Assembly (NCBI RefSeq): GCF_019097595.1
Contig: NC_080714.1
Coordinates: 22,976,759 to 23,040,758, forward strand
Direction: 5' to 3'
Length of the DNA stretch: 64,000 nucleotides
Source: Hemibagrus wyckioides
Lineage: Eukaryota; Chordata; Actinopteri; Siluriformes; Bagridae
The position numbers and the translations under genes were made by a program. Positions 262 to 63,790 of the stretch are shown here, piece by piece (position 1 is the first letter of the stretch; each line of letters begins with the position of its first letter). The notes beneath the pieces are model-generated. The model worked only from the letters and a program-made list of their open reading frames with translations, was not told the origin of the DNA and did not search any database.

Positions 262-6489
<6,228 letters not shown>

Positions 6490-16329: not shown

Positions 16330-16361
<32 letters not shown>

Positions 16362-17019: not shown

Positions 17020-17062
<43 letters not shown>

Positions 17063-17467
17063 TACACACACATTACACACACCTTCAAACAGGAAAGACT
17101 ACGTCCTGTACACTGTAACTAGGGTGAGTTTAAACAGCGTGTTGATTTGAAACAAACAAATAAACAAAAACAAAAATCAACTCCGGAAGTTGGCTGAAAT
17201 CAAACAGTAGGCACTTTCTAGCTAGCTTGCAGTTAGCTTGCTGTTTACAAAACAAATCGCAGTTGTACATGCAGATGTGAATGCAGATGTTTCCACCATG
17301 TGTAGACTATAAACAGAAGTGGCAGTGCTACAGGAATGGCTAGTTCTAATTAGCAGGAACACTCACGGGTTGTTGGTGCTCATAGTCAGTAGAAGACTGC
17401 TCAGGAGCCGCACGTTAGAATGAAGGCCCGCGGCTGCCATGTCCCGCACATGATCAATAACATTCAT
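11954..17467 (-). CDS. anapc7: Anaphase-promoting complex subunit 7 (APC7)
   Basis: TPR scaffold subunit of the APC/C, the ubiquitin ligase that drives exit from mitosis. Coding exons in gene order: 17367-17467, 16821-17007, 15257-15376, 15048-15159, 14805-14958, 14331-14473, 14111-14228, 13684-13880, 13318-13542, 12836-12986, 11954-12143. All introns are GT-AG; phases join without a break to give 565 residues, a length known for human APC7. The start MNVIDHVRDMAAAGLHSNVR is essentially the family N terminus. TPR units are seen throughout, e.g. KYSRALYLGAKAIQLN-type helices near 320-370 (here RYSRALYLGAKAIQLNSNSV) and YQEAMDQYSIAL near 490-500. The end is acidic and low in complexity (DDMEGSGEEGDLEGSDSE) and closes in WFGMQ. 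It is convergent to atp2a2, the same pairing as in human 12q24. Confidence 0.97.
15773..16480. mobile_element. Non-autonomous Tc1/mariner-like element with terminal inverted repeats
   Basis: Ends caccaatcaggcataacatt (left) and, in reverse complement, caccgatcaggcataacatt (right) match at 19 of 20 bases, and both are flanked by TA (15771-15772, 16481-16482), the Tc1/mariner target site. The left interior (gtgttggtcctccg...ggcatggac) is typical of fish elements with these ends. The right interior holds a retroposon-like tail (ggaatttccttcgggatcaa) running into (ATCT)n at 16331-16390, so it is probably a nested insertion. No transposase frame survives. It lies in the anapc7 intron between 15377 and 16820. 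Confidence 0.75.
17023..17065. repeat. CA microsatellite
   Basis: (CA)n just downstream of the acceptor of anapc7 coding exon 2, i.e. at the 3' end of its first intron, only about 15 bases from the exon. Confidence 0.85.
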
Positions 17468-21466: not shown

Positions 21467-24400
21467 CTACGTCTTTTCCTCCCGCTCTGTTTTGCGGCGC
21501 GTGATGTTTCTTGGCTTGATCTTGAGGGACAGCTCCCACAGCGCCTCCTCGGCGAGATGGTCGCTGAAGTCGTTGAAGAAGGACACGATGTCATCGTTGT
21601 GTTTGAGATCATAATGTCTGGAAGAGAGAAGGTGTAGCGAGGGTTAAAAGGAGTTCAGCGTGAAGAATGCAACATTTCACAGACGGGATGTACGACGGCG
21701 CAGACGGCTCGTCTGTTGTGGATGAGTGTGTGCGCTTTAAAGGTCTATTAAGCAAGGAAGAAAACATGACATGGCATACGGTTATAGGAAAATGATCAAC
21801 GATGTGCCAGTGTGATGTAGCCTAGAGTAAGTTCAAAATTTTCAGCATAACCAATATACACTATATTGCCAAAAGTTTTGGGACACCCCTCCAAATCACT
21901 GAATTCAGGTGTTGTTTTTCAGGGGTTGGGCTCAGCCCCTTAGTTCTAGTGAAATGAACTCTTAATGCTTCAGCATACCAAGACATTTTGGACAATTTTA
22001 TGCTCCCAACTTTGTGGGAACAGTTTGGGGATGACCCCTTCCTGTTCCAACATGACAGTGTACAAAGCAAGGTCCATAAAGACATGGATGAGGGAGTTTG
22101 GTGTGGAGGAACTTCACAGAGTCCTGATCTCAACCTGATAGAACACCTTTGGGATGAATTGATGCGGAGACGTCCCCACCATATAAACTCTTCTTCTTAT
22201 GTGTTTTTCTTTGGTCCCTATAGCTGTAATTAGGGCAAGTTTAATAATGCATAACAATACATAAGATTAACTTAACGTCTTTTGAACAATTCAACACACT
22301 ATTTCAGGAGTTTTCAGTGTTTCATAAATATCTCGCTGCTGTCTTTGAGTTCTGGCTTCTGCATTTAGTCATAAGTTAATGTGAATTTTTACACCAGACT
22401 TAAGGAAATGAGCGGTTGCCTGGTGCTTTCTAAAGAAACGTATGATGAAGAGATTACGCTGGAACCACTGGAAATAGGTGTACATCATGTTTCCTGTTTA
22501 CGTTGCAGTTTCTGTCTTAGGTTTGTAAACTAAATGAAGCCTCCAGTCAGTACTGGTACGTGCTGCAAATGTATTATTTTTTGTCAGCGTTGTCATGCAA
22601 GCACTCCACTGAAAGCACTCACATTTGCTGGAAGCGCCGCATGGTGTCAAGGATGTTGAACTGCTGCCAGCGTTTCGAAAAGTTCACCTTCCCTTGAAAG
22701 TAGTCAGGATTCCCAAGGTGCACAAAAGTTAAGTCCTGAAGGATCAGACCTCTGCGTTTGCAAAAAATAATGAGGAGAAGACAAGACAAAGTCAAACATT
22801 AATTAAAAGTGAGATGAGTCTATAGAAGTCTTTGTATATATATTCACAGTGATGCTGCACGTACAGGTACGGTATACAGGGAGGCTCCACGTCTGCCAAG
22901 GCTGCTCTGTACGCCCGGAACGACGAGGAGCTATCGATTAAAGTGCAGTATTCCTCTAGACCCTAACACACACACACACCATCACATCATAAACATTAAC
23001 CAGCACAACAAGAGCAAACAAGCTTGATATGACCTGGGAGAAGATATCTGACCTCTGAGGTTTGCTTCTGCCACTCCAGTCGCCGAATAGGTGCTGAATC
23101 CAGAGCCGACAGAATCGCCAAGTAGGAGTTAAAGTTATTGAGCTTTCGTAAGTGCTGTGGGAAGGAAGAGAAGGTCAGTCGTCTCATTTTATCCTGCGTG
23201 TACTGCGATGATGATAAAGAAACAGATTCATTTTACCTTCATGATTTTGATGAACTTGAGGAGGAGTTTTTCTCGGTCTTGGGCTTTTTCTTGCGTGATT
23301 ATTAGAGAACGCACCCTTGAGGAGAGAATTAGAATTACAATTACAATTAAAATTACAACCAATGAATACAATAAAAAGGCAGTAACCATGGAAAATAGTA
23401 AGAACGGATGAAATGTAAGAGGGGGGGTGTGCAGGATTAACAGTGAAGTGAAAGGATTCTTTCAGTAAATATTGACTAGACCCGAGGTACTAAAGTGCTA
23501 AAGAGGCAGAACCTGCTGGTATGTGTAACAATTTTTTTTTTGCTAAATAACTGCATATGCATTAGGATTTAGAAGTCAGAAACCATTATTGAAAATACTT
23601 ATATTATGTATTCTAAAGAAAACAAACTCTTATTGACTTTATTTCACTGTAAGTCTTATAGTGAATACAAACGGTTTAACACATGACCAGTTAACTCGGT
23701 GCATGATGAAATGATGAAGGAGTGCTACTTCCTGTTGTTATCTATGACCATTTAAGTCTCTTGAGTCAGTCTATTTGGGCTGATTTCAAGAAAATGGTCA
23801 ATAACAGATGTTATGGGGGGGGAAAAAAAGAAAAAGAAAAAAAAAGAGGTGGATCGTACCAGTAAGACATGTTATTGAAGTGCTCTGTGAACTCGGTGAG
23901 ATTCGGGCTCTTCTCTTCGTTCTGTTCTTTTGCCCACAGCAGAACCTCTGGGATCTGCAGACAGTTTCATGCATCAGTAAAACTCTTTCCATTCAAAAGA
24001 TACTTTTCTAAACTATTCTATAACATCAGCTATAAGCCTAACACACTGCGCATTATTTATATAGAGGAAATGTATAGCCTACAATGCTGCTGTTACTGTG
24101 TCTAAATCAACAGCTTTAAATGAGAGGAAACGGATTTACAAAATATTTGGTAAGACCTGCTGATGCAATATCAATAAATTATATCCTAAGACGTCTGAGA
24201 AATGGTGTATAAATATATCACAAGATCTAGTAAATGTTAAGCAAAGTTCATCAAGTTTCAAAAGTCCTGCATCTAAAAGCTATGAAATCCTCTATCTCTG
24301 TTCTGACTTTCTGAAGGATGAACTGACACCCATGATGTTTATTCTGAGACTGCGGGAGAGCTACCTCTATTTTGTAGAAGAGCTCTGCGTCCAGGAGAGT

Positions 24401-27400
24401 GAGCTGGTCTGCGATCTCATGGCTGCGGAAGTCATGAAGAGTACCAGGCCTGTGAAGAACGGATGATATCAGATGGGTCAGGAACGAAACATTACTACAC
24501 ACACTGCTTCACATGTTAAAACAACAGCAGAACCAAAAAGTCCCAGCTCAAGGGTGAACAATAGCAAATATACACTTTACAAAACTAAGACAGTTAAGCT
24601 TAGTATAAGAGAGAAAATGCAATCAGCTTGTAATTTTATTATTTTAATTTTATTATTAAATTTATTTACTGAAGGCTTCAGTAAAATAGGTACGAGTTTG
24701 GGAGAACTTCAGTAGAAACCCATGCGTTTGTCTCAAATGACTTCGCTGGTTCCTAATGAACACAACTTGGTCATGCCTGGGCTTAAAGTTAGAAGTAGCT
24801 CTTTACTGTGGTTAATTTCATGCAATTCATTGTCGCTGTATTCGACCCATTACCTCTGCTAACTGTTAGAGTTATTTGAACTTATTAATGAGGTCAGAGT
24901 ACCGTATTTAACAGTCAGAGAGATCCAAGTTGAGGCCCAAATAGAAGATATCTGGACACGTGGGTGTTTATTTACCTGGCGGCGACGCTGCGGGCGGCCA
25001 GCGGCTTCAACGAGTTAGTGTAGCTCAGCAGCTTCTTCTGCTCCACTTTATCCAGAATGTTCTTGCGGAGGACGCGGGCCAGACTGAGCTCCCCGCTACA
25101 TACCAGACTGACCACCAGGTCCATCAGGTGCTTCAGAATGTCTTCAGTCAGCTCCACCAAACTGGCACACACACAATAAAATTCTGATTAGCATACTTCA
25201 CTCACAAGTGTGATCCAGCTGTCTGTAAAGAACTTTGCATACACATTATAAAGGAATAAAACTCTTAGGGGCATGGGGAGAAAAAATGCAGGCAGAAGTG
25301 TGACCACACCCTGAATATACAGTTCAATGTTGTGAAACAATTAAAACATCCTGTTATCACTGTGCAGCACAGCATCTACAAACCATTGTTTTCCCTAGTG
25401 TCCAGAAACACTTGACCCGAAAGAGTCCTTCAAAAATGCCTCACGGACAACTCGATCAATAATACAGTAATCCTCCTCTATATCACGGTCCTGGTATATC
25501 GCGGATTTTTATTTGGAACATAACTAACTTTTTTTGCGGATTTTCCCGGTATATCACGGTATCCGCAAACCTTATAGTGAATTGTTTATGTTGAAATAAG
25601 GTCATTTATTAATGAAAATATAATTATAAATTACAAAATATAAACTTGAATTAAAATAAAGTAAAATGTTAATAATATATCAAATACTGTACAGCATAGC
25701 GTTGTTTAGGAAAGCGCGGTGTGGGGATGCTGGAAATCTAAATACAGTATCGCTGGAGGAACGAGTCCGGCCAATCGGAATGCGCCGTTCGTTTAATCAC
25801 GGTTGTGATTGGCTGCTGGCTATGCGTGGGGAAAGGGAAGCAGAATTTTCCAGCATCCCAGTTCTTGGCATGTCACTGTCCTGAGTGTTTGGTTTTGTTC
25901 TGTGTACGCTGTATTTTTACGCTTTTTCTGCAAGCCCCATTATGTCGCCCAAACGCTCTGCACCTTCTAATGCTTCTGGCAAGGAACATACATACATACA
26001 GTACTCACTATAAATGTGATATTTCTACGGATTTACCGAAAATTCATCTCGCTAAACGCTTGCAAATGTTTTCTGTGTGTGTTTAAAGAGTGTGGGAGGG
26101 TCATTTACGGCGTAAACAATAAAAAAAATAAAACCATTTGGGGGTGGAGTCTGTGTATCACTGATTTTTGTTTTCGTTTATAAATGGGGGATTAACTGTA
26201 CATATTTTACAAAGTCCATTCATGTGATGCACTGCTATACAATGTGCAATTTGTTACTATAGAAACAATAATATATTAGAAAATGCATATTATATTGTAC
26301 AAAAACTACTGGCAGACCTACTGTAATAGAAATTTGTCTAACACCTACCGACCAATCAGAAGGCAAGAAGATGAATAGGGAAAGCGAGCCAGTAGGCATG
26401 TTTGGGGTTTTTGTAATTATTTACTCACCAAAGTTCGTCCACAACACGCACCAGCACAAAGAAGGTGTTTTTGCTGACTCGCTTCTTAACGTTGTCTGAA
26501 CTGTGAGAAAATCTAGTATATGTGTTGAGAGGTTAAGAAAAAATAAATAATAATATCCCACTTTTTTTTTTTGTTTGCATCAGGCAGATGCTGTTTCTGG
26601 AGTGCTAGTGATTATCTGAAATAACAAGCCGTCAGTTCTTTGTAAATCACATCTTTGTTGTCTTTCAAAGAGAAGCAGAACGTGTGGGTATGTGGCACTT
26701 CACGCTCTTCTCTCCATCCTTTAAAATATGGAAATGCGGTTCTGTTCTACAGTCAGGCTGAAAGGATATCTATAGTAGAGCTTCTTAATGAGGTCCTCTG
26801 GGGTTAGAAACGTCCTGTATGTCGTCAGGAAGGCTTCACAGTATAAAACCAGATCTGCGGGAGAGAACGCACACTTTATTAAAATATAAAATCCTACAAG
26901 TCTTTTATCCTTTCCACCTAACTGAGCAGAAGGGGGGAAAAAACGGCTCGTCTTTCCTGCAGTTTAAAGGGGCGAAAAAAAAAGATCCTAAAGTTTTTTA
27001 AGCTGTAATATATTTTCAGTTCTCCACCAGGGGGTGCTGTTGTACCACAAATACTTCGCCAGCACATTTTTAAAATATCATAATAACAGGTGACTATCAT
27101 CAGGTTTCAGATGATTTGTTGTATATTGCTGCACTCACTATAAGGCACAGTGTAAATATGAGTACGTGGACATGTATTTATACAATTTTTTGTGTTGTTA
27201 CAGAAAGGGAGACTTGTTTGAACCGAAAGGAACCTATGAAAATTTATAGGGCGTGGGCAAAAATTTTAAACCCTGTTGCACTGAAAAGAAATGCGCCAGC
27301 TTGGAAAATCAGTATGTACTGACTGAATTGAGTCACTGTGTTACACCTTACAAACTCTTGCTCTACTGCGTTGTATTGGACATCCCATAATTTGCTTGAA

Positions 27401-30359
27401 AGCTTGATCCAACTCATTTTGGTGAAAGTTTTACCCCCACAGAGTCAAATCTGGACACTATTTTTCATATGTACATGCATTCACACACACACACACACTC
27501 ACCTTTGCGATCCGTTTCTGTTGCATGAACTAATAAAATGTCCCCTGATCCCGCTCGAACATCTGGTCCATCGTCATTCTGTTTCAGAGAGAAATAAAAA
27601 GAAGTTTTAACTATAAACCTTGTCTCGGCGTACATCTCTAACACTTGAGCAGTCTTGTGTGTTGTTTTTCTTTTTACTCATCTGCCTTATTGCAGATAAA
27701 AAGGCTGTACAGATTGAGGTTAGAGATAAGCAAAAGTGTATCTATAAATACCACAGTGTGTGGACAGTAGATTGATTCTGCACACTCTGGGTGGGGGATG
27801 TGATATCTGCAGCAACTTTGACCTTGCACCATTTCACACAATTTGGACTACTGGCCTGTACGAGTGCTAGGAGCAGAATGCAACGACGTGCCTGTATCAG
27901 TTCATATAGCTATATGTTTAATGCTCTAAAAATCGTAATCTGTAGTCAAACATGATGTGGGTGTGGCTAAAAGGAAACGTTTTTAGTAAATTAAACACAC
28001 TGTCAAACACTGAGAAATGGGCTTTACCAGATCCTCACCATCAGCACACCATTTTGTTTCGTACCTGCCTGAACGTAGATAATTCCCAAAATATAAACGC
28101 CAGTAGCCCAATTTACACCACCATGTCCAGATAGGTACTGAGAATTCTGTAAATGCTTCATATCTGACCTACTTGTCCATATGCATTAATGTCAAGTTTG
28201 AAAAAAAAGTCACGAAAAAGAAAATATTTACGCAGACTTATCATCCGGTCTAGCCGTTTATCCCTTGGATAATTGTGAGCGGACATCACTAAATCCCGAC
28301 ACTGTATCCCGGAATAGTGAAAAACCTTTCAATCGAATTGCAATTGCAAGATAAAATAATAAAATGTGGCATTTGTGTGGTATAAACATGCAATAGCAGG
28401 AGAAAAAAAGTCACAGATGTAAGTGTGATAAAAAACTTGTAGTCTTGAGATAAAAAGTGCTCCTCCTTTTCATATCTGTGCTATTACATCAATTCAGAGC
28501 ACATTACTTTTGAATCATGCCCGCTCGCATTCAATTACATTCCTAAGAATCACACAGCAGCACCGCGGGTCTCCGGCAGACAGGAGGCACTGTTGACATC
28601 CTTTTTGCCGATATAAGCGAACACATGTTGAATAATGAATCTCGCTGATGAGACGAGAGCCGGTGAGCACACGCCATCCGGATTGCTCTCCAGCTGTGAA
28701 GTGCTAAACTGCACTGATGACTCTGAGGGAGGGGCACTGACAGGGTGTTACCTCTTGTTTTAGTGTGATGCGAGCCATGATCTCATTATGATCCACCAGG
28801 GACAGCTCGTCCAGCTCCTCCGAGCTCAGGTCCGAGTCTGCACACTTCTGTTTCCAGCTGAGAAGAGAAACAAACTCTTGTCAGAGGTGTGTACTAACAG
28901 CAAGCGCCGAGACGAACCACAAAAACACACGTGTTAATGCGAGTGAAGTTTCCACTCATCTGTGAGGTAGATGTTAAATTAGTAACATGACCGATCAAAG
29001 CGAACAGATTAACATAAGCCTGCGATACGCTTTAGCCAGAGCTGCTGAAATGAAAAATGAATCAACACCTTCTGACAGAACATATGGTATAAATCATCAT
29101 GCTGACTGTTTGGTTCTTTGTCCCAGGGAATTTTAATTAACACTAATCTACAAAGATCACTATTCTTGATAGCTTTCAGTCTAGAATGTTCACTGACTAT
29201 TTTCACAGGTTTGATGAACGTTTCCTGATAGAGATCTGACTTTCTGAAGACTGTCTCGCTGAAGCTGGGGCCAGAAAAGTGTATAAAAGATACTCTTGTT
29301 AATGGGCAAAGTTGTGTCTGAAGTTTATTAAAAAACCATACAGGATTGTTGCTCTATTCACACCAGTAACACTTACATCATTTATAAAGCATGTGTTCTA
29401 ATATTGAATATTAGCAACTGGTTCTATTTTCTAGCACGGCTCACCTGTCCGAGTCAGTCGGCTCCTTGCTGTTGTCCGAGACCGAGTCCTGGAGCGAGTC
29501 CTCTGTGCCGCAGCTGGGGTCCTGCCAATAACAGAAGCACACTTGTACAACTAAGCCAACCCATGGTGTTTTGATTTGTGAAGTGCAAGCACAAACACAT
29601 TGAGTGTGTTCGCAAAAATAGGACGGCTTGGCGAATTAACCGACTAGCTGTGATATTTCACTCGGCTGTGTTAAGGTCAGGAAAGCAACAAGAGGAGACG
29701 TGTCAGGGCAAGATGAACATCCAAATATGGCAGCATGCTGAGTGAGTTGCTGGTGATGGAGGTATGACATTAATCAGCCTACTTTCACACCCCTGAGATC
29801 GAGGCACAAAGATGTCAGACAACCTCAGTGTGTAAAGCGTATGAATGGGTACGGAGCCTGTCCGTCAGCGCAGACTCTGTATTTATTCAGACAGCACTGG
29901 TGGGAAAACTCACACAATCTATTGCAGGACGGTAATTTTCCAGGCCATGAATAGAAGAAGAAAACACCCAGGTGGATTCAACAGCAGCCTTATAGGCACG
30001 AGTTGATGGACGATAGGAAGGAATGAAAAGCAGAGATAGATTCCGTATTGCTGTGGTTAATAAATTGGACAATTTAAATGCCAAAAAATGTGATGTCTAC
30101 AGTTTGAAGGACTTTCATGTGGCGGATGACAAATCACTTTCTGCTCCTCATGTCTTACTCCACTCCACATGAATTCATGCTTAGCCAGAACCGAAGTAGG
30201 AGTCAAAATAGACTACTGGTAATGCTCAACATGTCAGCTTAAGCCCCGCTCCCTCAGCTTAAAATAAAAGGGTAATTACATGGACACATGCAGATATAGA
30301 GCGCTTTGTTCAGTTAGTAATGGAGACAGATGTGTATGCACAGTAGCTGGAACCTGGAC

Positions 30360-30392
<33 letters not shown>

Positions 30393-33300
30393 AATATTAT
30401 ATATATATATCAAATAAAAAACAAAAAAACCCAAATGCTCAGCCAGCATTTCAAACAAAATATCTATAGAAGGTGTCAGGGTTTTCAACTTGTGGAAATG
30501 CAAACTCGTCTCAGACAAACTCCAGATTCTCAGGGTTGAGTTTGGTTGACATCATGGCTATTTTGCCACCCAGGGGCATCATGCATCCTGTCTGATTCTA
30601 CACCCAGACCTCAGCTTCCTAACAAGCTGGAATACAACTCGACAGCACTGACCGATCCTTTAAATAAAAGCCGACAATTAATAGTGTCAGATGACCAGCA
30701 ACAGCTATTGTGGGAATTTAATAAAGGAAAAGGTTTAGTTCCAAAATACAACAGTTAAACCCCTGCCTGTGTGATACTACTATCAATCGCTGATTGTCAC
30801 AAGACCCAACTGGAATAGGGTAGATTAAATTGGGGAAAAGAAACAAGAAAGTATATTGCATATGCATAACTGTACCGTACAAAATTCTAGTATACTAGCA
30901 CAAACTGGGTTTCAGAGCAGGCTCACTGTTTGTGCTCCACAGAGGGTTGTTCTAGTGCAAATAAAACTGTCAAGAATGTCAATAGCTTCATTATAAAATA
31001 TGCTGCAGCACCCTCCACCCAGGTTTCCCAGGCTGCATGATACAAACAATGACTCTCCAGGCTGCACGAGAGGAACACAAGTACGACACAAGCGGCACAC
31101 ACCAGAGCCCGGGGGGTGGGGGGTAAAAACAACTCGGAGCTCTTTGGCTACAACTCGAGCAGTGTGGCTCCTGCTACTTACACCGTTTGAGAGTGGCAGG
31201 TCTCCGTTGGCTTGGCTGGATGAATACAGATTGACGTACCCACCCTCGCCACCCTCGTCACTAGCATTCTGGCTCTACGGAAAGAAGGAGCAGAGGCGGA
31301 GAGGCGTCAGACTGAAAGCAGAAGCGGGATGTAGGCCTGGAGCCCATTCGAACAAACCACTGGGCTCTAGGCTTAAACGATAATAGAACCTGAGTGAAAA
31401 AGAAAGACAGAAGTAGCCAGAAAAAAAAAAAGCATGCAAGGCCAAAAATACATAAATCAGGAAGTGCTAGAGCAGACAGCTGTTTTATTATGACCGATGT
31501 TTCAGAGCATCGTGTTAGCCGGTATCTGGTTACACGATGAATTGATTGCACCCAACAACTTCAGCAATCAGTCAGTGTGTGGTATTCACTGTGTGGGCAT
31601 AGTTAACAAGGTTTTATACCACCACACCCCTCTTCATTAAGCCAGCCCCTTTCCGTACATGATCTTTGCAAAAGTGCGTTCTCCCAGAATTCATCTGCAA
31701 AGACATCTGATGGGTTTTCCCACACCGCCACACATAATACTAGCAACGGAGACAGACATGTATAGTCTCATCAAGGCTTGATCGATCTCTGTAAGAATGC
31801 AACCCCTTCAACATCCAAGACACACGGTTAGCATGCTCCCAGTCCTGAAGTGTCAATTTTTAATGTAGTAGTAGTAGACAGACGAGGGCATCGTGTCATA
31901 CTCTCCATTACTCCATCATCCACAAAACTGCCGCAATCTGTCAGTATGAGGGAGGCTCATGGGTTTTAAATAAAATTACATTCTTGAGGAAAAACACACA
32001 CACTGCTCTCTGTAACCCAGAGCATGCAGTCTGGGAATATGGATGCTCATGATGTCTACATTTATTAGACATACTTGTCAAATTGTAGCCCTTTTCTTGG
32101 ACAATGCATGTCTGATTCTCAGCACAACTGGTTCAGCTCCAGCATCAAAACTCTGTTGGTCTGGAACCAAGAACCATCACGGTGACAACAACGAAAAAGT
32201 TCTTTTCAAGATATCTGATCAATGATAAGATATTAACCCAGCAGGGGTTTGAACGGAACTAATGTTGTTCTTCCTCAGCTCTCTGTTCGGGGACGCCACA
32301 ACAGATCATTCAATCCGCATGTTAGATTTTGGTACAGGTTTTACGTTGGATGCTCTCTTGAGGCAACCCTCCCATTTTATCCAGGCTTGGGACTGAGAGA
32401 CTTCTCCGTCTGGGTTGGTTCCCCGTCCAATGTGAGTGCGGGATCCATCAGAGACTGTTTATATATAACTAATACTGTTGAAAATTTTAAGACTTTAGTA
32501 AAACTACGAATCGGTGGTATGTTAAAGCTTTAGATATGAATAATTTGAGAAATCGGGCGACGCAGTGGTTCGGCTGAAATGTAGAAAGTTTGCTTGTTCC
32601 CTTGTCCGGCACAAGCTGTGAGAGAAAATGGTATATTTCATATCACTCACTTATCCTAATAAACACAACATTTCCCATCAAGTCAAAACAGGAAAGAATT
32701 CCGGCATGAATCACGTTGACTTGAAGCCGCCATTGCGTCAGAAGGCGATTCTTGTTGGAGCGTGCTGAAACACAAACCCAGGCGTGTAAATGGAAAAACA
32801 ATTAACCTTCTGTGTGAATTCATCCAGACAAACTGACTCACCTCTGTAAAGAGGTTCCCACTTCAAGAGCTCACGGCTTGAACAAGCTTACAATCGCCAA
32901 AAGGAGACTGTGATTATAACACTGATAAGATGTACTGTAACCGTGTGTGTGTGTATGTGATTCATATGAAGAGAAAGGAGTGCATTTACATTCCTGTATT
33001 AAGTGAGTAGTGAGAATAAGAGAACGTCTACAAGCGGAGGCACGTCAGTCACCTCTTACACTCTCCTGCTATACTCAGTGAGCTACAAAATTTTTCCAGT
33101 TCCTTGGTTGTTTTTCCCCCTCAATCCCAATCATGAATTTCCACCTCCTGTTCATGGCAAAGCGTAGAGTTTTCACACCTCATGATAATCAAGCAGGAAA
33201 AAGCCACTCTGTGGTTACGGTATATTCTTAAGTCATGGGTTCAGATGGTAACAAATGTCAATAGCTATTTAAGAGCCATTTACAAAAAGATCGATTTTAA

Positions 33301-35661
33301 GAAACGTAATTTCTTAAGTATAATTTAATCATAGTTCTATGCTACAAGAAGTGTGTGGGTGTGTCGGGTTGTACAATGACTGACAGTGCCGTCTCCCAGG
33401 CAACGCAAACAACCCGTCAATAGTGTTAGTGCTAGGAAAGCTGAGGGCAAAGTGTGGGTCAAATTCACACAGGAACAAGCAGAAAAGTTATATTTAAATA
33501 AATAATAATAATAAAAAAAATGAGGGAGCCAACCGAAATTGGCGGAACATCCAAAAACCATCATGTTTCGTTGATCAATCTTTTACTAAAGATATATATA
33601 AACGTTTTTATAGACCAAACCAGAGAAAAATATTCTTGATTTCAGTAAGGTCGATTTTCTTTGTGTTCATATGTCTGTTATTAAATGCCAAGATCCATGA
33701 TTTACAATGTGCTTTCTCAGTAAAGCTCACGTGCATTCAGTGACGCCCACAAAACTCCATACAATTAAAAATAGAACCTCACTACGGTGACCATAGTGAA
33801 TAGATATAACTAATATATATTAAAGCTACAGCTATAACAGCTTAATAACAACTTAAGATGTCATTCATAACTTAGCCTTAAAAAACCTAAAAAGCCTGGA
33901 AATAAGTTTAAATACACACAAAAATAAATGCATACAATTATCACTCAAATATTATTAAGACGCATCACAATAAAACCAACCTGTGCAGCGCGTGGGACTG
34001 AACACTACGTTTCAGTGGTTTTTTTTTCCACAGTCTCATATCACAGGAACAAAAGGCTCTAAGGGTTAGTAAGGAAGTGAAGGTGTGAGCACGAAGCAGG
34101 CAGGACTCACCGTGGCGGCAGGGGGAGAAGCCGGGCAGCCCAGAGAGGAGCTCGAGGCGGACAGACTGAGAGCAGCGTCCACCTCAGCAGAACCCGGGCC
34201 TCCGGCCGGCTGCAGCTGGCACGACAGGGAGGAAGAGGAGGATGAGGAAGGAGACGCAGAGTGAGAGGAGGCCTGGGATAGGAAAGCAGTGGAGAGAAGA
34301 GGAGATTAAAGAGGAGAAGCGGAGCGGATTGTGCAAGGCAGTAAGGCAATCAGATAAGCTGGAAATGTATTAAGAATGAAAGTTGAGTCTGCTGAAAGAG
34401 AAGAAAGAGAGCTGAGGGATTATAAAGAGAAAAGATTAATCAATACAGAGCATGCTGAATTTAGCCTGCACCTGATTAAACACACACACACACACCTGTA
34501 GTTTCTTTTGCTGAGTCACACTGAATCTTCAACAATAAATACTAAAGTGCAACACAGGTCACAAAGGAGATCAAAATAAAGCAGAACAATATAAATAGAC
34601 TCAGCGTTTTTTTATATAGATTCTGTGTACAAAATGTGCAAAACTCGGCACAGTGTACTGAAGGTCAGTCGTTTCCTCAGGGTCTCGCACAGATCAGAAG
34701 AGAATAGAGAAGTGAGCGGACAGGATATTTAAGATTTTTCAAGCTTCTTCCTCTGCAGAATGTAAATGCCACCAAAAAACCCCTTTTATATATTTTACTC
34801 TACATAACATGGCGGTGCATTAGGAAACGTTAGATTATAATTTTTTTTTCCATTTCATTTCACTGTCTGTACCGCTTATCCGATCTATCCTCGGGTCACG
34901 GGGATCTCGGGTGTCATCGAGCATCAAGGCAGGATACACCCTGGACGGAGTGCCAACCCATCACAGGGCACACACACACACTCATTCACCCACGCAATCA
35001 CACACTATGGGCAATTTAGAGACTCCAATCAGCCTAGTAGAATGTGGGAGGAAACCTGAGCACCCGAAGGAAACCCACCAAGCACGGGGAGAACATGCAA
35101 ACTCCACACACAGTGAGCGTGAGGCAAACGTGCTAACCACTAAGCCGCTGTGCTGCCTAAATTATAATGATAATAGAATTACTATTTTTATTAAGCAAAA
35201 AGTAAATTATTTTTATCTGTTTATTTTATTTGTAAACCGCTTTTAAATCGTGGGCATGGTCTCAAAGCAGCTTTACAGAAATATAAAAATATAAATGACA
35301 AAGTTTAAAATAAAATGTATATTTATCTCTAATGACTAAGCCTGAGGTAAGAGTGGTGAGAAAAAACTCCCTGAGATGACAGGCGGAAGAAACCCTGAGA
35401 AGAACCCATCCTCATCTGGGTGACAGCAGAGAATGTGAGAATATATATGACATCCTTTCTACAGCTGTGTAATAGTCAGGTGGAATAGTACAACCAAGAG
35501 CCTAGGAGCAACTTAAAGACCAATTTAAACACCAATTTCTTCCTGCCGAAGGCTTAAAATATTCAATAATGGAGACCCGAGCGAAACACAATCGCCATAG
35601 TCTCCATGTGGTTTTAATGCTTTCCCAAACCAGCCTTTTTAATCCTCAGTCTTGAAGCTAC

Positions 35662-35705
<44 letters not shown>

Positions 35706-37998
35706 ATAATAATAATATTCTTAAAACGTCAGCTTACTGAGTTTTCCAAAGCACTGACACTAGAGGTTCCTTCCATAAAATGTCTCATTACAGAAAACCT
35801 CTCCTATTTACAATCATAATTTAAATACACACACGTTTTCAAGATCATCAACTCTTGATATGTGGAGCGTCTTCATACTAGTCCCTGAGAAAAGTGTGTG
35901 TGTGTATTAGAATGAGTGCATTAATATAATCCTGTGATCTGATTACAGCCTAAGCTACTTTAATCTAAAGTAAAACACCGCCATCCAACCAATCACGTTC
36001 AAGAATTCAGTAGCGTTGTGTGGTATCAGCAATAACTCGAGACCAAAAACCTGGTCTTGAACCACCTCTCCTGGGCTTGAGCGTCTCTCTAGAGGTTCGG
36101 CTCTTATTTTTATATACGTCACCGGGGGGCTAATTAGTATCTCTCTCTCTCTCTCTCTCTCTCTCTATAATACACATACACCCCTGACATGTTCACAAAC
36201 AACCACACGCACACACACAATGCCTGAGTCAGGAAGATGATGAAATGTAAGACAAGACTCAGAATGAAAGAAAAATATAACAAAAGCGATGACACACCAC
36301 ATCAGTGTGTCACCTCAGTCACAGCAGACTGGGCTTAATGAGAGTGCGCCTGCTATGACACAGTAATCCAATGCAAAATAAGTATGATTAAATGCGTAAC
36401 TGCTGTTTACAGAGGGAGGAAGCCAAACACACCGCTGTGCAAAAGTCTGGAGGAGAAGAGCGTAGGGTTGTGCGCTAACTACTGCTGTCAGAAATGACAT
36501 TTTAATGGCTAAAAAAAAAAGCCTCGGTTTTCTATTAGTAATCTGATGTAGGTCAAAACATGTACTTCTGATGCATGCATGACTTTGCAAATTTTTTGCT
36601 TCCAAATAATGTATTGAACAAATATTAATTTTCTGTACCATTCATCCTACACAGGGTACCAGGAAGCCTGCAGCCTATTCTAGGGGACTCATGGATGCAG
36701 GGGGTCCCAGTCCATCGGAGGGCACAATAACACACATCTTAGCAACACCAATCAGCCTAGCACACACGTCCATGGACAGGAATAGTAAATGTGCATTTGT
36801 TTACTGTGGAATGAATGCATGGTGCGGTATTCTGTCTGTGGCAGGAAAATAATAAAGGCTCATTATTATTGTTGGTGTGCAGAACATGTGGCGCGTTTAC
36901 ATGTTGAGTATGACAGCAAGTTCCTGCGAGAGGAAAAGAGAAAGTGCATGAGTGTGTACAGTATGTCGAGCTCACCAGCTGCCTCTGTTTGGGTGGAAGT
37001 GCTGGAGGAGGGAGGGGCTCGTGCACAGAGTCACTGCTGCTGAACGAGTCGTTAAAGCCGTACACTTCCTGTATGAGCCTGTTGCGCTGCTCATAGATGC
37101 TCTCGCTCTGCGGCGTCTGGTAGAAGACGGATGGCTGCGGTTCCGAGTAATCCTCCACAAACTGCATGTACTTCAGGACTGTGGGTTATGATGCAGATGG
37201 TGTTAGCGAATGCACACTTTTACTTATCACCGCTTCACATTCTGACTAACTCGAACCTACCCAGGTGACCCACATTTAATCACACCCATAAAATGGAGGT
37301 CAAAGTACCGACACGATCATAAACTGTAGCCAAGCGGCCACGTTTAATCCTCGACCCACCGATAATTTATAGCTCTTATAACATGCTTTGGCTCTTATTG
37401 TCTCCCTTCGGACCTATAACACACCGGAGAGAATCTTCTTTAACAAACATGCCAAAATCTTAATGAGTGAAAATAAACAACAGCAGCTGTGCTTAAACCT
37501 CACTATTACACAGCATGCAGACAGTATGCAGTATTACATCATCACCCCACCCTCCTCCCCGCCCAAACTACGTCCGCTCTGAGAGACTCTAGGTGTGAGG
37601 TGATTTCCTGAGTGGCAACTATTAGGCCTCAAACATATCCTTGCACATTTCAATGACAAACTCATTATGTCATGACCTCATGCTACATCTGACGTCTCCA
37701 TATCGCATTTCAGTGGGAAAATCTGTGAAGCATTCAGCTTCAGCACACAAAAGCGTTTATAACAGTGATATAAATATCTATATATTTAGACTGTGATCTT
37801 TTAAATCGGCCAATACAGTGTCGAAAATCACCTGCTTAACTTTGGCACAAAAATTAACGTCACTTGTGGGCGGGGCTAGCAGCAATATTCATTACAGATT
37901 GGTTACACATACTAACAAGACAATATAAATAGGCAAACTACAAAAAATAAATATATAACTATATAACTAATATATATATATATATATATATATATAAC

Positions 37999-38042
<44 letters not shown>

Positions 38043-41000
38043 TATACACTGTATATAGCATATTTATATTTTTTCTATAGACCTTGCTGCATAATCTAAA
38101 GTCCAAGACGTGGAGCCTAATCCCCATCCCCTAACCCACACACCATGCATAACACATTAAGCCCAATTATCTTTCCTGAGATGCACCACTTCCTGGATTG
38201 TTGGTTTGAATTCATCCATGTAGTTGGGGCTGGATCAGGTCCAACTACCCCATGGATGTCTGGTTTGAAGCAAGAGATAATTGCCAATTCTTGCGTTCAT
38301 GTTTCTGAATGTGTAGTGGGAAAGCTGCGTTTTGCAGAAATTAAGATGAAATGCTCAGTGCTGTAGGTGGTTCAGCAGTTAACATGACTGACAAGCAGCT
38401 GAAGGTCTGCAGGCTAGATCCTACCGTGCACTGCCTGTATACCCCTGAGCGAGGCACTGAAATCCTAAGCGGTTCCTATGGTGCAAGCGCTGTTCTATCA
38501 TTTAATCAGGTTGTATCTGTAAATGATTAAACGTTCCCATTAAAAATAAAGTCTCCTGTGTTTTTTTTTCCTCCTTAGGCTCCTACATAGCTAACATTCA
38601 ATGATTTAAGGCATTAAAATGTTTTGTGCTAATTAAAATTGCAATTCTTAAAGACAGTCCCGATACTCACTGTGTCTGGCCTTCTTCTCGGGTAGAGGTG
38701 GAGGAGATTGAGGCACAGATGCGTTCTCAGACGCGTCAAAGTCCGTCCCATATCCGACTATGGGAGCGAAAAGAGGGAACACAGGAAACGGCGGCACAGG
38801 CATTTCCTCGTCTGTGACGTTGTCGTAGTGGGAGTGCAGGCGCTCGAAGGGGGTTCGAGACGCCAAACTGTCGAAGGGAGTCTGAGGGTTGCCGCTGCGT
38901 CGCTTCTTTTCCGGCAGAGCAGGAGGTGTGATGAAGGCGTGTGGAGGAGGAAGAGTGACGAACTGATTGAGAGCGGGAGAACCGTACGGAATCTGGCCTG
39001 GACACGGGGAGGACGATGGCTCCCGATGGGACTCGGGAAGAGGGCTGAGACAGCTTCCGGTCGGCATAGGAATCTGATCCACGCTGGACAAGTCCTCTCT
39101 GAGGAAGTCATAGTCTGGGTCGTAGCTCTCTGCTGTATCTGAATGAGAAGCCAGATGACCGTTAGCAAAGTGCATGTTTACTTACAAAAAGAAAAAAGGT
39201 GTGCTAGAAAGAAAACACCTCACCTAGAGTCTCACAGCTAGTGTTGCGAGAGCACTGTCCACTGTCCTGCTCCAGAGAGGACAGCTGCTCGTCCGACTTG
39301 CTCAGTTTACCCATGCTGCCGCAGGGAGAGCCGCGCGGTGACTCGCCACCGAATGAGTGACTGCCACCAGAAAAACGCCGCTGTAAACCATCTGCATCAT
39401 AATCCTGAAAATAAACATGATAGTGTCAGTAAGTGCACACACTCATATACAGAACCAAGATTACATGTGTTTGCATCACATTCTTTTGCTTGTACATGAA
39501 CAAAGTAAGCAATAAAACACTTCAGGGAATACTATTGCAGGAAGATCATCAATGATCACTATAACCAACCAGAGTTAATCATTTTCCAACAATAGCTTAT
39601 TTATTGGTTTTATACAACAGCATCAGACAGTGAAAACAGATTTTCCCTTATAGAGAAAACTACATAATTGTGTACACACCTGTCTGCAGATGCCGATAGG
39701 AAGACTCGACCCACTCGTGGCACGGCTCATAGGAGCAACGACGGCGACTCGGGTAGGAGACGGAGCTGACTGGCGCTTCTTAGGAGGAAGAGCTGGGGGA
39801 CTAGAGACAGAAGAAAGGAAAGTAGTTTTCTTTATTATTATTTGTATAGAAAGATTCGGAAAAACCAAAAGCTGCGCAGAACAAAAATCAAAAATTAATG
39901 ATCCGTGTAGAACAGAAACGGCTTCACTTATATTTGTCTAATTTATCTTCAGCTTTTTATTTGCACAAATCTCCAGAACACAAAGAAGATTTCCCAGTCC
40001 CAGTGCTCTATATCATTAACAGTCGAGTATGTAATATCTCGGCTCTTCTACCGTGAAACATTTCCCTGTTCCCAAAACACAAGAGTCTGAAACAAAGTTG
40101 AGAATGAAAATTCAGTATCAGTGTCTGTGCCTTTAATAAGCGCAAAACAGAGCGCTGTTTTTCTGTAGAGAAGAAAGGCGAGAGAACGAGGTGATGAATG
40201 TGTCAGAATCAAGAACGAGATAAAAAAAAAAAAAAATCAGCCAAGATGATGATGATGTCTGCTTTTGCATCAACTCCTACAGATAAAATCTTACTGGCTA
40301 AGGGACTTTTCCTCTGCTAATTTAAGAACAAAAAGTGAAGCTAATGCTTTAATTGGTGTGTCAGAAGGCAGGTGAAACAAACAAACAAAACAAAGCAAAA
40401 AAAGAGAACTATAGGCAATAATCTACTCAGCATTACAAATAAAACCTGTTGTACACCGTATGGAGAAAATCTTAGCCAACAGGAAATTAAAGGAATTTCT
40501 TTTTGACTATTTAAATATAATTATTTTGGGTTCCTGTTGGTTGATTTTAGATGAGCGTCGTTTTAGATCAGAGGTCATTTTCGGTCGCATTGTCACTAAA
40601 TCAGCTGCCAGTGTGCATGTCTCATTATGCGTCTCGAGACTGATCAGCTCCTGCGATTTCTGTCTGGGATAAAAAAATCAGGCCAAACATTTTACTGTCA
40701 CCAACCTGGCTTAATCAAAACAAACCACTCTGAAACCTATTCTATGGCTAAAATAACTATTTTACTATTATACCATTAATATTTTAGAATTTTTAGAAGC
40801 ACACCCTGAGGCAAAAATAAATAAATAAAAATAATAAATTCATAAAAGAAAGTTAACACTACAGTGTATTGACAATGGCGGCAAACAAACAATGAAGCAA
40901 TGAAGTTATATTACACAATTTTATTTTACTAATAAGTACGTATGAGTTAACATTTTTGTACTCTGAATACATTTTGCATATGTAGAGTATTCCATTTCAT

Positions 41001-44000
41001 TTATTTTCCATCTCATTTATATTTTTGAATACTTTTTATACTTCTGAATACATTTGCATATACAGATTATTTCATTTATTTTTCATTCATATTTATTATC
41101 TGAAGCGGTCTCTGGCAAAAGAATTTCCTTTGGGAAGATTCTATCTTATCTTATCTTATTCTTTAACCATTCAGTATACATAGATATATATATAAAAAAA
41201 GCTATTCTGTTTATGGATACAGCTTTCTACCTTTAATTCCCCCTTTTGTTTTTCTGCGACTATCATCATTGCTATCTCCTCACACATTCATTCCAGAGTG
41301 CACCACGCAGTCCTCCAGACAGACGAATAATTAAAAGGACATAGTCTTCATTCCAGCCTTAATGTCTTCCACAGAGACATCTGGATCAAATGCAGTTTCG
41401 CCTTTAAAACACAGTCAGATGTGCAACTAGATGTGGCAATTCCTTCCACTGTTTATCATTCGACGTGCTGGAAATAAATACCCCCTCCTCCTCCTGCCGT
41501 AAAGGGGAAAAAAGGCTGGGTCGGGGTGCTGTTAAAACCCTCACTGCTCGCTTCAGGAGACACGATGGAGTCATGGTGAGCACAGTGCAGCAGCATGTGC
41601 ACCGAAAAGGGCAAGGCTGTTAATACATACGGTATATCCCGAAGGAAGATATTCAACTTCGAGTCGATTTATTTGCATAGTGCTTTCAACAGTAGACACA
41701 CACAATGCATACTTGGTGTAATATGGATGATTTCTAATGAGCGAGCCACAGGATGATAGTGACAAGGAAAATCTCTGTTAGAGGATTTGAAAAAGGATCT
41801 TTAAAAAGGAACCACACTCATAAAGGAACCCACAAGTGATACTGAAATGATAAATCATCACTATGTACAGTTCCCACCTACCCTAGAAATGCGCCCGTGA
41901 GGATGTAAACCTAATCTGAGTCACAGCAGACGATAATAGGCGTCTACGAGTTCGTGTATGTGGAAGAGGGTGGATTTGTGAGCTTTCTCCGAGCGAGTGC
42001 ATTGAGCTGCCCTGTGAGGCTGCCTGGCTGCACATGCCTCGGAGGAAGAATGTGCTAGACCTCATCCTCTCTCTGCTTGGCACCTACTATCATGTGATAG
42101 GAGAGCTAGGAAAATATAACCAAATAGGGCAACAACTGGGATGAGTTTATGCTTCAGTTCATCTTTTTCATGCAGAATATGATTTCAGAAAAATAAAAAG
42201 GTTATGAAACCGATCATTCAGGATATAGTGTGTAGGCTCACTTCGTTAATTATGTCTAGCCTTCAGCTGACACTGTAGGAAGTACTGTTTCTTCTGTACA
42301 GGAAAGATACACACCCTCCACACACCAGAACAGTAACTTTATATAAAAAAGAAAAGAAAAGAAAAAAAACACAGTTTGACAGAGGAAGTACAGAACATGC
42401 ATCTCTGCACCCCTACAAAAAAGACACCTCTACAGAAGCACACTATTTATAACAGCCTGCTTCACACCTTCCCATTTAGACTTCTTGTAAACACTACGAT
42501 TTGAGAGAAAGTGCTGTGTAATCATCTGGAGCGACTACAGATCGGACCTAGCTAAAGGCACAGCCTCCCTCGCTTCAGTGAACACCAACACCAATCCAAA
42601 TATATCCAAATGAAACCAAACTAAACAATAACATGGCTGGCTAGGCAATCTGCCCAAATATACCGAGTTAAGCGGTGGCAGTTTCTTGTGAGCAGACAGT
42701 GAGAGACAGTGGGAGCTGTGAATCAGAGCCAGTTCACTTACCAATGCTCGGGCACTTTGAGGCCAGGGAGCGGGGGTTTGGGTGGCGCTGCTTCTTTGGT
42801 GGAGGGGGCGTCAGTCAGGGCCTCGGTGGAATGACTCAGTGCAGAGGAGTTTGTGGAGCTCTCGTCTTCGGTCTCTATAACAGGAAGCTCCGGAACACTG
42901 TAATGACCATAATCGTGTTAGTGCATAAAGACACGTGGTTGTTCAATGACTTGGTACTATGGGACGTATTTTCAATTATCAAAAAATGGGTCTCATGAGT
43001 GGTGCAAGACACAGGAGTCGTTTTGAACCATGACAATCCTCAGCTGGACGCAACCGAGAGGACTAGGTTATTTCTCAACATCATTCTGCCACCACAATGC
43101 TTCACTGCAGTATTATCAGGGTTATACTAATGCAAGGCTATCGAGTTTTAGTGTTCTTCACCTCTCTGAGCTGATGACTGAGGGGACACTTTTGGCTGTG
43201 GGTGATGTTGGGGAAGGTAGCTGCTGTTTCTCCAAGACCAGCTTCACCAGTTCCTGCAAGAAACCACAGACAGTCATGTTTCTGGTCACACCACCTCAGC
43301 TTCACAGAACACAAAATTCACAAGATTCAGGTGTGCAAAAAAAAAATGTGATCATGAAGCATTACCTTCACCCCATCCAGCACCGCTTTGATGATGCTGG
43401 TTACATTTGCAACAGTGTCCTTCTCTTCCAGGTTCACTCCCTCCAGCATCACCTGATCTGACCAGCGGATGAGGTTCGCCAGACTCTGATACACTCGGTT
43501 GAGGCAGGATGACACGGAGGAACTGCACAAAGAACAACTCCAAATGTTGTAGCTCAGAAAGCAGGACAAGTTATGATACCGAGCAACAAAAAAACAAAAA
43601 CAAATAAATCATATGTAAGTGTGGAATTTGTAACCATTGCCCAGACAACACGTGGTGCACAGCTGGAACAGAGGAATCTGACATATCCAAGAGTTTCAAA
43701 GGTGAGAGTAATGTATTTGTCAGAATCTGACTTCTTTGTGAAACCAGAACACGGTTAGATTTGGATATGGCTTTATTAAATAAAAAAAGTCTTCACCTTT
43801 TCAGAATCTTGGCGTCAATTTGCACTAGAGGCACGATAGCCTCCAAAACTTTACTGGCGGAGCCGGGAAGCATTTCCAAAACTTTCCGGTCCAACACCAT
43901 CTTATCAATTATCGTCTTGAAGTAACGCAAGGCACTGACCACTTCTTTCTCCTTCTCTTCCAACCGGCTGAGACTCTAAACCCAGAGACAAAAAGGTGAA

Positions 44001-47000
44001 AATAGACTACAGGTCAACAGAGAGTGCAAAAGGGATCGTAACAGTCAGAGTACACATGCAGTGTACACAAAGCTACCTTAGTTTCTTGCTTCTCGGGAGC
44101 CTTGACTATTCGCTCTACTGAAGGCTTTGATGCTTTCTTCGATGAATGTACTCTTTTTGGCTTGGGGGAGTGAAATCGGTCTATTAGCCTCATTGTGAAG
44201 GTTTGAAGGTTGGAGCGCTGGGAGTCTGAGAGGGGAGGGAGGGATAGAGGAAGAGAAGAGCGAGAGAGGAAGAGAAATGAAAAAAGGAAACAAATAAAAT
44301 CTCGGTAATGCTGCGCAATGATGTTCAGGATTGTTTCATTTGAACTGAAAACAATATCTAGAAAGCTCGGACAAATCAGTAGCCCGAACACCCAGAGCTA
44401 TCACTTTGAGTGAACAGAAAACAGCAATTTCGTCACACACATCATAAAGCCTGTTTATATGTATATATCTTCGACTGGTCTATAGTCACAATGACTGATA
44501 GGCCTTGAAGGAAACCTGTGTTACCTTGAGAGCTTCATCTGATAGGAGAGAGCTGGCTGGCTGTCAGGAAATGGCAAAGAATTAAAGAGAAAAGAGCAGC
44601 AAAAAAAATCCCCCTGCACCTTAATAATTGACTAAAATGACATTACGTTTATTTAACATTAATGAATAAGTAAAAACCCCACAACCATTCAAGATACACA
44701 ATCGAGTGTGCTACTCTAACAGCAACAAAATTAACTTCGAAAGAGAAACTACTCAGCGAGTTAAAAGTAGTTCACAACAGCCCACTCGGTGTGTCTGCCT
44801 CAGCATGTTCAACATGGACCTACACCCCTTTAGGCGAACAACTTTAACTCAGACACAGCCACATAAAAGGCTCGAAGTTGTACCTCATAACTCCTCCTAG
44901 CGTGTAAACAGACAGAAGGAGCAGCTTTCACGCTTGAGAGCAGCATGATATTTCAGCCTTTTATGCTCTTCAGGAACATAAACAAGGGAAGCGGGAAGAG
45001 AGAAGAGCATGTGGCCATTGTGTTCAGTCGGATCCTCTTCTGCGAGCCGGATCGGTCACACGCTTGAACTGAAGCAGGCTAAGTTGGAGTTCTAGTGATG
45101 CCACTAATTGCGAACGAAACCATTTAGGGGAAATTTCCTCAACTCTGATGAACGTAGCTTGAGGTTAGTGTGGGTGTTCTGTGGAGTTTCACGGTCAGAG
45201 CCCACACGTAGCACCTCAGAGCGAGAGTGCTAAACTAGTGGCAGCTCACACGACACCTCACGCCCTCAGTAGTGCACTGCTGGAGGAGAATATAAAAAAC
45301 AAGTATAGTGCAATATAGAGATGAGTTTGGCTAAGAACATGGTTAGTTTTACGGTAAGCGGCAAACATGGCAGGGAAGTCCCTCTGAACAGCTTCAGGCT
45401 TTAACGGCACTGACGGTTACCTGAAAATTGAACATAGCGAACAATAGGTATGTCCCATCTCATGACCTCTTTAGTTCTAGACCAAGAGTTAACATTTAGG
45501 AGGGCAAGAGGCCAACTTTTTGAATCACACTGAGCTCTGTCCTAGTGACGGTGTACATAAATGTTTTACTGCTTTATTAAACTGTGCAAAAAGGGAGGGA
45601 AGTTCCCAGTCTTATCACTGATCATTTGAGCTGATAAAAGCATTACAGTTACCAGGTGAAATTACCCGTGAAAGACGACTTCCTCAATGTCTGCGTAAAT
45701 GGCCTTCCCACTCAACTAACGAAAGCAATAATAAAAGAAAGAAGAACTGCTTCTGGCAACTATAAAACAGAGGAAGTAACTCAAATACAAATGCGTTTTG
45801 CTTTATTTTTGGACATCAGGCTCTTCCTTTTGGTTTTAAATATTACAGTCTAAGCGGAAAGGTCCCTTCAATCCAAGTTATTTAACTTGGAAAGAGTTAT
45901 TTACAAATAGCACCTTCACAGCTAAAGGACCATTTGAATAGTATGAATCAGAGCAAAACTCTTTAGAATCAATGCCTTTAATTATATTGGTCAGAAATAC
46001 ATAGTGGTAAACAGAGGACAAAGAGTGTAGCAATGACACAAATCAAGTACAGAACCGAACTTGGCTATCGTATCTTTCAATTATTTTCTCTTTCGCTTTG
46101 CTGCTCCATACATCCAGAATTCTGCAGGTCTACAGCTCTGTCCTTTGGCTCCACGTGGTTCAATTCAACAGTTTGCATCTACAGAGTATCTCTGCAAGGT
46201 CGAATCGTTTTCTCATTAAAATTTACTAGGTACCGGACCTACACTATATTGCCAAAAGTTTTGGGACACACTTCCAAATCACTGAATTCATGTGTTGTTT
46301 TTCAAGGGTTGGGCTTGGCCCCTTAGTTCCACTGAGATTTTCTTTGGGATAAATTAAAGCAGAGACTTTATCGTCCAGCATCAGTGCCTGACCTCACAAG
46401 TGCGATTCTAGAGGAATGGTCAGAAATTGCCATAAACACACTCCTAAATCTTGTGGAAAGCCTTCCCAGAAGAATGGAAGCTGTTACAGCTGCAAAGGGT
46501 GGGCTAACTCCATATTACATTCATGTGCATGTAAAGACAGACGTCCCAGTTTTGACCTGGCTCGCAGTCTCCACTCTAATTCATCCCAAAGGTGTTCTAT
46601 CAGGTTGAGGTCAGGCCAGTCAAGTTCCTCCACACCAAACTCGCTCATCCATGTCTTTATGGACCTTGCTTTGTACACTGGTGCACAGTCATGCTGGAAC
46701 AGGAAGGGGTGATCACCAAACTGTTACCACAAAGTTGGGAGCATGAAGTTGTCCAAAATGCCTTGGTGTGCTGAAGCATTAAGAGTTCCTTTCACTGGAA
46801 CTAAGGGGCCGAGCCCAACCCTTGAATTCAACGATTTGAAGGGGGTGTCCCAAAACTTTTGGCAATATAGGGTAACACTTGGACTAGGAGTCTAATCGCT
46901 GACTAATAAAATAAACCACACCAAAGAGGAAAAGCACCAGGGCCCGATTCTAACGGACTAAACATGTGAAAGCACCCTAAAAGAAAGTTGTTATTGGAAA

Positions 47001-51466: not shown

Positions 51467-51709
<243 letters not shown>

Positions 51710-59436: not shown

Positions 59437-63647
<4,211 letters not shown>

Positions 63648-63659
63648 TATATATGTATA

Positions 63660-63790
63660 TACATAAAGTCATTTTTGCATAATGTCCTGTATAACATACA
63701 GAATGTATACTGGTCTGCACTATTTTGTGTATCTATCGTCAGTTATATATGGATGAAATGACAATAAAACTGACTGACTTGACTTTTGAG
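63660..63790 (+). repeat. Possible retroposon 3' tail
   Basis: ggatgaaatgacaataaaac followed by tgactgacttgactt looks like the 3' end of a fish non-LTR element or SINE. Only the tail is seen. From there to the window end nothing is recognised. Confidence 0.4.

What the first reader, a model, noticed from the sequence alone, without database searches (positions are those of the whole stretch)
26522..26769. AT-AC (U12-type) intron in the REM domain of rapgef1
Seen: the donor ATATCCTTT, the branch-like TTCTTAAC, and an AC end about 11-12 bases further on. Reading across with AT-AC gives a sequence that fits C3G, whereas no GT-AG choice does. AT-AC introns are a small class spliced by the minor spliceosome. 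If conserved, Rap1 activation by C3G would depend on minor-spliceosome activity, and retention of this intron would cut the protein before its exchange domain.
Basis: partly seen in the sequence, partly recalled or inferred. Interest (0 to 1): 0.75.

Follow-up and report, generated by a model that had tools for sequence, protein, structure and literature searches.

The report
Rare AT-AC intron in fish rapgef1
A fish copy of the gene for the Rap1 activator C3G carries one intron of the rare AT-AC kind, apparently shared by many vertebrates, and gene models in public databases often go wrong at that point.

Summary
On the minus strand, 26769..26522 is a 248-base, phase-2 intron that starts ATATCCTTT and ends TTTCTTAACCTCTCAACAC, inside the REM domain of rapgef1. 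Of 11 introns modelled in the gene's 3' half, it alone is not GT-AG. The AT-AC join restores conserved C3G sequence without a gap (score 270); the best of nine open-frame GT-AG joins scores 228. Retention adds 15 codons and a stop before the exchange domain.

No orthologous DNA was available, so conservation was tested indirectly. 134 of 352 fetched C3G-like proteins read past the exon as R-Y-P, as AG|[A/G]TATCCN would. Of 87 with a foreign residue just before the next exon, 80 have Thr, as an AC end would give. Two of three searches were aimed at such models, so these are not rates. Short contigs of relatives carry the correct join.

Best reading: a conserved AT-AC U12-type intron, ordinary for its class. 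Minor introns are reported in 71% of Rap-GEF genes (PMC6865273); whether RAPGEF1 is among them I could not check. Control of Rap1 through this intron is untested.

The parts
26522..26769 (-). AT-AC U12-type intron, phase 2, 248 bases, in the REM domain of rapgef1
26761..26769 (-). 5' splice site ATATCCTTT (8 of 8 positions of ATATCCTT)
26532..26539 (-). Branch-site motif TTCTTAAC; putative branch A 11 or 12 bases before the intron end
26522..26523 (-). AC 3' terminus of the intron
26770..26854 (-). Upstream exon, (D)LVLYCEAFLTTYRTFLTPEDLIKKLYYR, last codon split AG|A
26429..26521 (-). Downstream exon, YTRFSHSSDNVKKRVSKNTFFVLVRVVDEL(C)
26721..26723 (-). First in-frame stop if the intron is retained, after YPFSLTVEQNRISIF
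26513..26514 (-). In-frame AG nine bases beyond the AC end; an AT-AG splice here would delete YTR without a frameshift (no evidence of use)
21470..44193 (-). rapgef1 coding region as traced by tblastn with three vertebrate C3G proteins; ten other introns modelled, those from 28751 downwards, are GT-AG

Best explanation
It is a conserved U12-type (minor spliceosome) intron of the AT-AC subtype in the REM domain of rapgef1. By general knowledge of the class, U11 would pair with the 5' splice site ATATCCTT, U12 with the sequence around the branch A, and the minor spliceosome would join AG|A into one Arg codon between KKLYY and YTRF. Shown here: the signals, the reading frame, the best fit of this join to C3G, and the stop on retention. 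Inferred: that the minor spliceosome removes it, that retained mRNA would be degraded, and that the intron is older than the split of ray-finned fishes and tetrapods.
For: Signals: the donor matches ATATCCTT at 8 of 8 positions and GTRAGT at 2 of 6; the branch motif lies in the last 45 bases of this intron and of none of the other 10 modelled introns. Frame: the AT-AC join scores 270 against a homologue; best GT-AG 228, GC-AG 227, AT-AG 246, GT-AC 253. The 10 other introns resolve as GT-AG with equal length to the homologue. Relatives: contigs with little room for introns carry the correct join, for example P0001 (1416 coding bases of 1608) and P0004 (1686 of 1724). Read-through models: 134 of 352 fetched proteins continue as R-Y-P, 52 species by hand count. 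Of 87 proteins with a foreign residue before the downstream exon, 80 have Thr, as AC|N encodes, in 40 species by hand count. 35 of those 87 show F-F-N or F-L-N a few codons upstream, compatible with TTCTTTAAC or TTCCTTAAC.
Against: No RNA of this species and no orthologous genomic DNA was seen; protein models only imply the bases. R-Y-P cannot tell AT from GT at the donor, since AGA and AGG both encode Arg. Searches were built from read-through models and list 120 of 2800 and 120 of 3406 hits, so the sets are enriched, and many entries are isoforms of one gene. 7 of 87 have no Thr (3 Lys, 2 Ala, 1 Glu, 1 Ser); in two of the 80 (P0019, P0020) exon-coded Thr adjoin, so the source of the Thr is unclear. 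Five of the 87 reach past the shallow class without the [FL]-N pattern (P0022, P0030, P0047, P0279, P0301). The U12 consensus sequences are recalled, not taken from a call.
Confidence: 0.96

Rival explanations
1. It is an AT-AC intron removed by the major (U2) spliceosome, like the known sodium channel cases.
For: U2-type AT-AC introns exist (PMC2831892, passages seen).
Against: The passage says the sodium channel introns of this kind have G at +5; here +5 is C, the donor matches ATATCCTT fully, and a U12-like branch motif is present.
Confidence: 0.02
2. The true splice is a GT-AG or GC-AG pair nearby and the protein differs from relatives here.
For: Nine GT-AG and nine GC-AG joins keep the frame open; many fetched public models show other joins at this point.
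Against: These joins score at least 42 below the AT-AC join and break a stretch that relatives on short contigs keep. The failed models differ from one another here, as expected of forced joins.
Confidence: 0.01
3. The intron is also a switch: limited minor-spliceosome activity retains it, giving an early stop and less C3G, so Rap1 signalling follows minor-spliceosome activity. This would add to the best explanation, not replace it.
For: Stop 15 codons into the intron. Shorter minor introns are retained more often (PMC6717393, passages seen); this one is 248 bases.
Against: No retention data for rapgef1 were seen. PMC6717393 also reports that many minor introns are spliced efficiently (passages). 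Searches pairing RAPGEF1 with U12-type, minor intron or U12 and C3G with minor spliceosome found no paper.
Confidence: 0.15

Closest known systems
AT-AC U12-type intron of RAPGEF3 / Drosophila Epac (table in PMC2831892, passage seen)
   Same: Rap-GEF gene, AT-AC, U12-type, shared by human and fly
   Different: Different paralogue; whether the position in the protein is the same was not tested
Minor introns of Rap-GEF and RASGRP families (PMC6865273: 71% and 100% of genes, passage seen)
   Same: Same gene family and intron class
   Different: The main text does not name RAPGEF1 (0 occurrences of 'rapgef'), so this intron may or may not be counted there
U2-type AT-AC introns of sodium channel genes (PMC2831892, passage seen)
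   Same: Same termini
   Different: Those have G at +5; this one has C at +5 and U12 motifs

Membership tests
U12-type intron, AT-AC subtype | AT at the start and AC at the end | tested here: met
   five placements give the same mRNA because ATAT is shared, AT-AC being the only one with the termini of a common class
U12-type intron, AT-AC subtype | 5' splice site ATATCCTT (consensus recalled) | tested here: met
   8 of 8 positions; the other 10 introns modelled match at 2-5
U12-type intron, AT-AC subtype | Branch motif like TTCCTTAAC close to the 3' end (consensus recalled) | tested here: met
   TTTCTTAAC, 11-12 bases from branch A to end
U12-type intron, AT-AC subtype | Spliced at this junction in mRNA | tested here: inconclusive
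   Short contigs of relatives have the join; no RNA of this fish
U12-type intron, AT-AC subtype | Removed by the U11/U12 spliceosome | not testable with these tools
   Needs depletion or mutant RNA data
U12-type intron, AT-AC subtype | Class conserved in orthologues | tested here: inconclusive
   Broad but indirect: R-Y-P and Thr signatures; donor A versus G unresolved in relatives
RAPGEF1 (C3G) | RasGEF and RasGEF_N domains | tested here: met
   PF00617 E 1.2e-56, PF00618 E 5.9e-10
RAPGEF1 (C3G) | Best named hits are RAPGEF1, and exons matching its N-terminal half lie upstream | tested here: met
U2-type AT-AC intron | G at +5 of the donor (as in the sodium channel introns, PMC2831892) | tested here: not met
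   ATATC: +5 is C

The most novel reading that the evidence does not exclude
A short AT-AC intron kept in C3G since before the split of fishes and tetrapods makes C3G output, and so Rap1 signalling, follow minor-spliceosome activity through regulated retention, and this explains part of the adhesion or neuronal defects in minor-spliceosome disease.
Probability: 0.12. Interest if true: 0.6.

Novelty: new member of a known kind. Interest (0 to 1): 0.3.

Why it matters
If the class assignment holds in vivo, C3G needs the minor spliceosome for its exchange domain to be made. Public C3G proteins, a human entry among them (P0259, isoform CRA_b), carry foreign residues in the REM domain at this junction, which matters for structure models, variant calling and orthology work. 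Reading intron ends from failed protein models could serve for other minor introns too.

Tried and rejected
Searches of this assembly for the donor pattern and for one snRNA family got no answer. The Rfam scan at gathering thresholds and the tRNA scan of the window found nothing. The PDB search (28 sequences at E 0.001 or less) named Ras-GEF relatives but no RAPGEF1, and the stretches shown across this exon were not significant. Papers, nine searches: none for RAPGEF1 with U12-type, minor intron or U12 or C3G with minor spliceosome; one for minor introns with RAPGEF, PMC2831892; two for U12-type introns, guanine nucleotide exchange and AT-AC; two for minor spliceosome with Rap1, judged unrelated from the listing; the two mixed searches list 20 of 179 and 40 of 192 papers, and in the 40 RAPGEF1 occurs in none. 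The Levine and Durbin paper and PMC4349895 are not held. I considered GTATCC instead of ATATCC as the donor in relatives: protein models cannot exclude it, but the window itself has A.

Full report
What is there. The window carries rapgef1 on the minus strand; tblastn with three vertebrate C3G proteins traces its exons from 44193 down to 21470. A protein joined from the 3' exons has the RasGEF_N and RasGEF domains and is 91-93% identical to the best five of 120 listed homologues, of which the one with a name is Notothenia rapgef1b. The catfish Pangasianodon gigas is 95% identical over 74% of the query, so the window is probably from an otophysan fish; this is an inference.

The intron. Between the exon ending KKLYYR (26770) and the exon starting YTRF (26521) lie 248 bases that begin ATATCCTTT and end TTTCTTAACCTCTCAACAC. 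The split codon is AG|A. Eleven introns of the 3' half were resolved by scoring GT, GC or AT donors with AG or AC acceptors near each boundary: ten are GT-AG with a product as long as the homologue, this one is AT-AC. A wider scan of joins with any termini across this boundary gave 4268 with an open frame. The top score, 270, is shared by five placements that give the same mRNA; AT-AC is the only one of them with the termini of a common class. Best other AT-AC join 256, GT-AC 253, AT-AG 246, GT-AG 228 (nine joins), GC-AG 227 (nine joins).

Chance. In 500 order-1 simulated sequences of the window's size, ATATCCTT occurs 2.7 times, and ATATCCTT followed within 400 bases by the branch motif and AC 0.076 times. 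The window has four ATATCCTT; only this one is followed by the branch motif and AC, searched to 5000 bases. Its place is fixed independently by homology.

Transcripts of relatives. Some homologues come from contigs with little room for introns: P0001 has 1416 coding bases of 1608, P0004 1686 of 1724, P0008 1848 of 2172. They carry the uninterrupted join, KKLHYR-YTSF, KKLHYR-YTRF and KKLQYR-YEKF. I take these for cDNA; the source label was not explained by any search.

Conservation read from failed models. No orthologous DNA could be fetched. But models that do not use the AT-AC join may read on into the intron or back out of it, and so reveal its ends. Reading on from AG|ATATCCTTT gives R-Y-P-F; the window's own read-through is YRYPFSLT. 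In the first, unaimed search, 6 of 120 listed proteins have R-Y-P (trout twice, whitefish, bullfrog, button-quail, rattlesnake), and a cod protein of the more divergent fish group reads F-R-Y-P but was missed by the counting pattern. Reading out of AC|A gives Thr before the downstream exon: 8 of the 120. Two further searches were then aimed at such models with read-through queries (120 listed of 2800 and of 3406). Over all 352 proteins, 134 have R-Y-P, 67 more have only the Thr sign, 1 only a Lys there, 93 match a loose pattern for the correct join, and 57 were partial or fitted no pattern, many of them invertebrate or cut short. A foreign residue stands before the downstream exon in 87: 80 Thr, 3 Lys, 2 Ala, 1 Glu, 1 Ser. 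By hand count the R-Y-P set covers 52 species and the Thr set 40, 84 together, mostly mammals and birds, with 10 fishes. These numbers show breadth, not frequency; many entries are isoforms of one gene.

Branch site in relatives. 35 of the 87 carry F-F-N or F-L-N followed by two or three codons and the last residue; 38 if any residue before F-N or L-N is allowed. Examples are YFFNPCST in a human entry (P0259), chimpanzee and night monkey, CFLNPCST in a bat and CFFNLCPT in a tinamou. TTC-TTT-AAC and TTC-CTT-AAC are such codons, and the spacing suits a U12 branch site. 44 of the 87 reach too little into the intron, or not at all, to show it; five others lack the pattern (P0022, P0030, P0047, P0279, P0301). 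The bases are inferred.

Limits. R-Y-P fits AG|GTATCC as well as AG|ATATCC, so the donor's first base in relatives is not proven. Three caprine models (goat, ibex, sheep hybrid) have Lys where others have Thr, which would mean an AA end. PMC10639083 calls AT-AA the commonest non-canonical minor intron ends in animals and plants (passage seen).

Consequence. Retention adds YPFSLTVEQNRISIF and then a stop at 26723..26721, before the exchange domain. Decay of such an mRNA is expected from general knowledge. An AG nine bases beyond the AC end would delete YTR in frame; nothing shows its use.

What is known. PMC6865273 (passages seen) states that 71% of Rap-GEF and all RASGRP genes contain minor introns. 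PMC2831892 (passages and section 7 seen) lists an AT-AC U12 intron in RAPGEF3 and Epac and reports 156 of 180 vertebrate U12 clusters conserved in all eight lineages. PMC6717393 (passages seen) reports 770 human minor introns, about 22% AT-AC, with shorter ones retained more often. PMC10639083 (passages seen) says that many minor introns may be unannotated in many genomes. Searches pairing RAPGEF1 with U12-type, minor intron or U12 and C3G with minor spliceosome found no paper in this library. Intron lists in supplements could not be read, so this intron may well be catalogued already.

Verdict. It is an ordinary, apparently conserved member of a known class. Control of Rap1 through it remains a hypothesis.

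Noticed in passing
P0215, P0301, P0279 (proteins): Goat, ibex and sheep-hybrid C3G models have Lys where other models have Thr, which suggests that the intron ends in AA in caprines (AT-AA). Inferred from protein only.
   Followed up: partly
P0259: A human public entry (isoform CRA_b) carries HRPHGYFFNPCST before YEKF at this junction, so the fault reaches human records.
   Followed up: partly
37 proteins between P0267 and P0309: Models of cats, a jackal, a seal, a hedgehog, a rabbit, a gopher, a gibbon and mouse keep the protein length but replace the last residues before YEKF by HST, CPT, HCT, RFT and the like; perhaps a forced splice pair shifted by the same few bases at both ends. Not traced.
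   Followed up: no
P0036: A cod protein of the more divergent fish RAPGEF1 group reads F-R-Y-P at the same point, so a second fish paralogue may keep the U12 donor.
   Followed up: no
P0028, P0157, P0194: Some models are cut at or near this junction: the Pangasianodon gigas model starts just downstream of the REM exons; a carp and a camel model end in YPFFCVVYLIC and YPCL and lack the exchange domain.
   Followed up: partly
window 62485-63732, minus: Long open frame of a Tc1-type transposase (DDE_3, HTH_Tnp_Tc3_2); a fragment with DDE_3 at 58281-58559 plus, and by eye similar pieces near 18.3-18.9 kb, 21.9-22.2 kb and 46.3-46.7 kb.
   Followed up: partly
window 1392-5324 plus and 11957-17072 minus: Neighbouring open frames look like a calcium ATPase (atp2a type) and a TPR protein like anapc7. 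Names by recall; Pfam gives haloacid-dehalogenase-like hydrolase and TPR hits on four of them.
   Followed up: partly
window 51454-51783 and 62205-62444: Simple repeats seen in the open-frame list as SIYL and YI runs.
   Followed up: no
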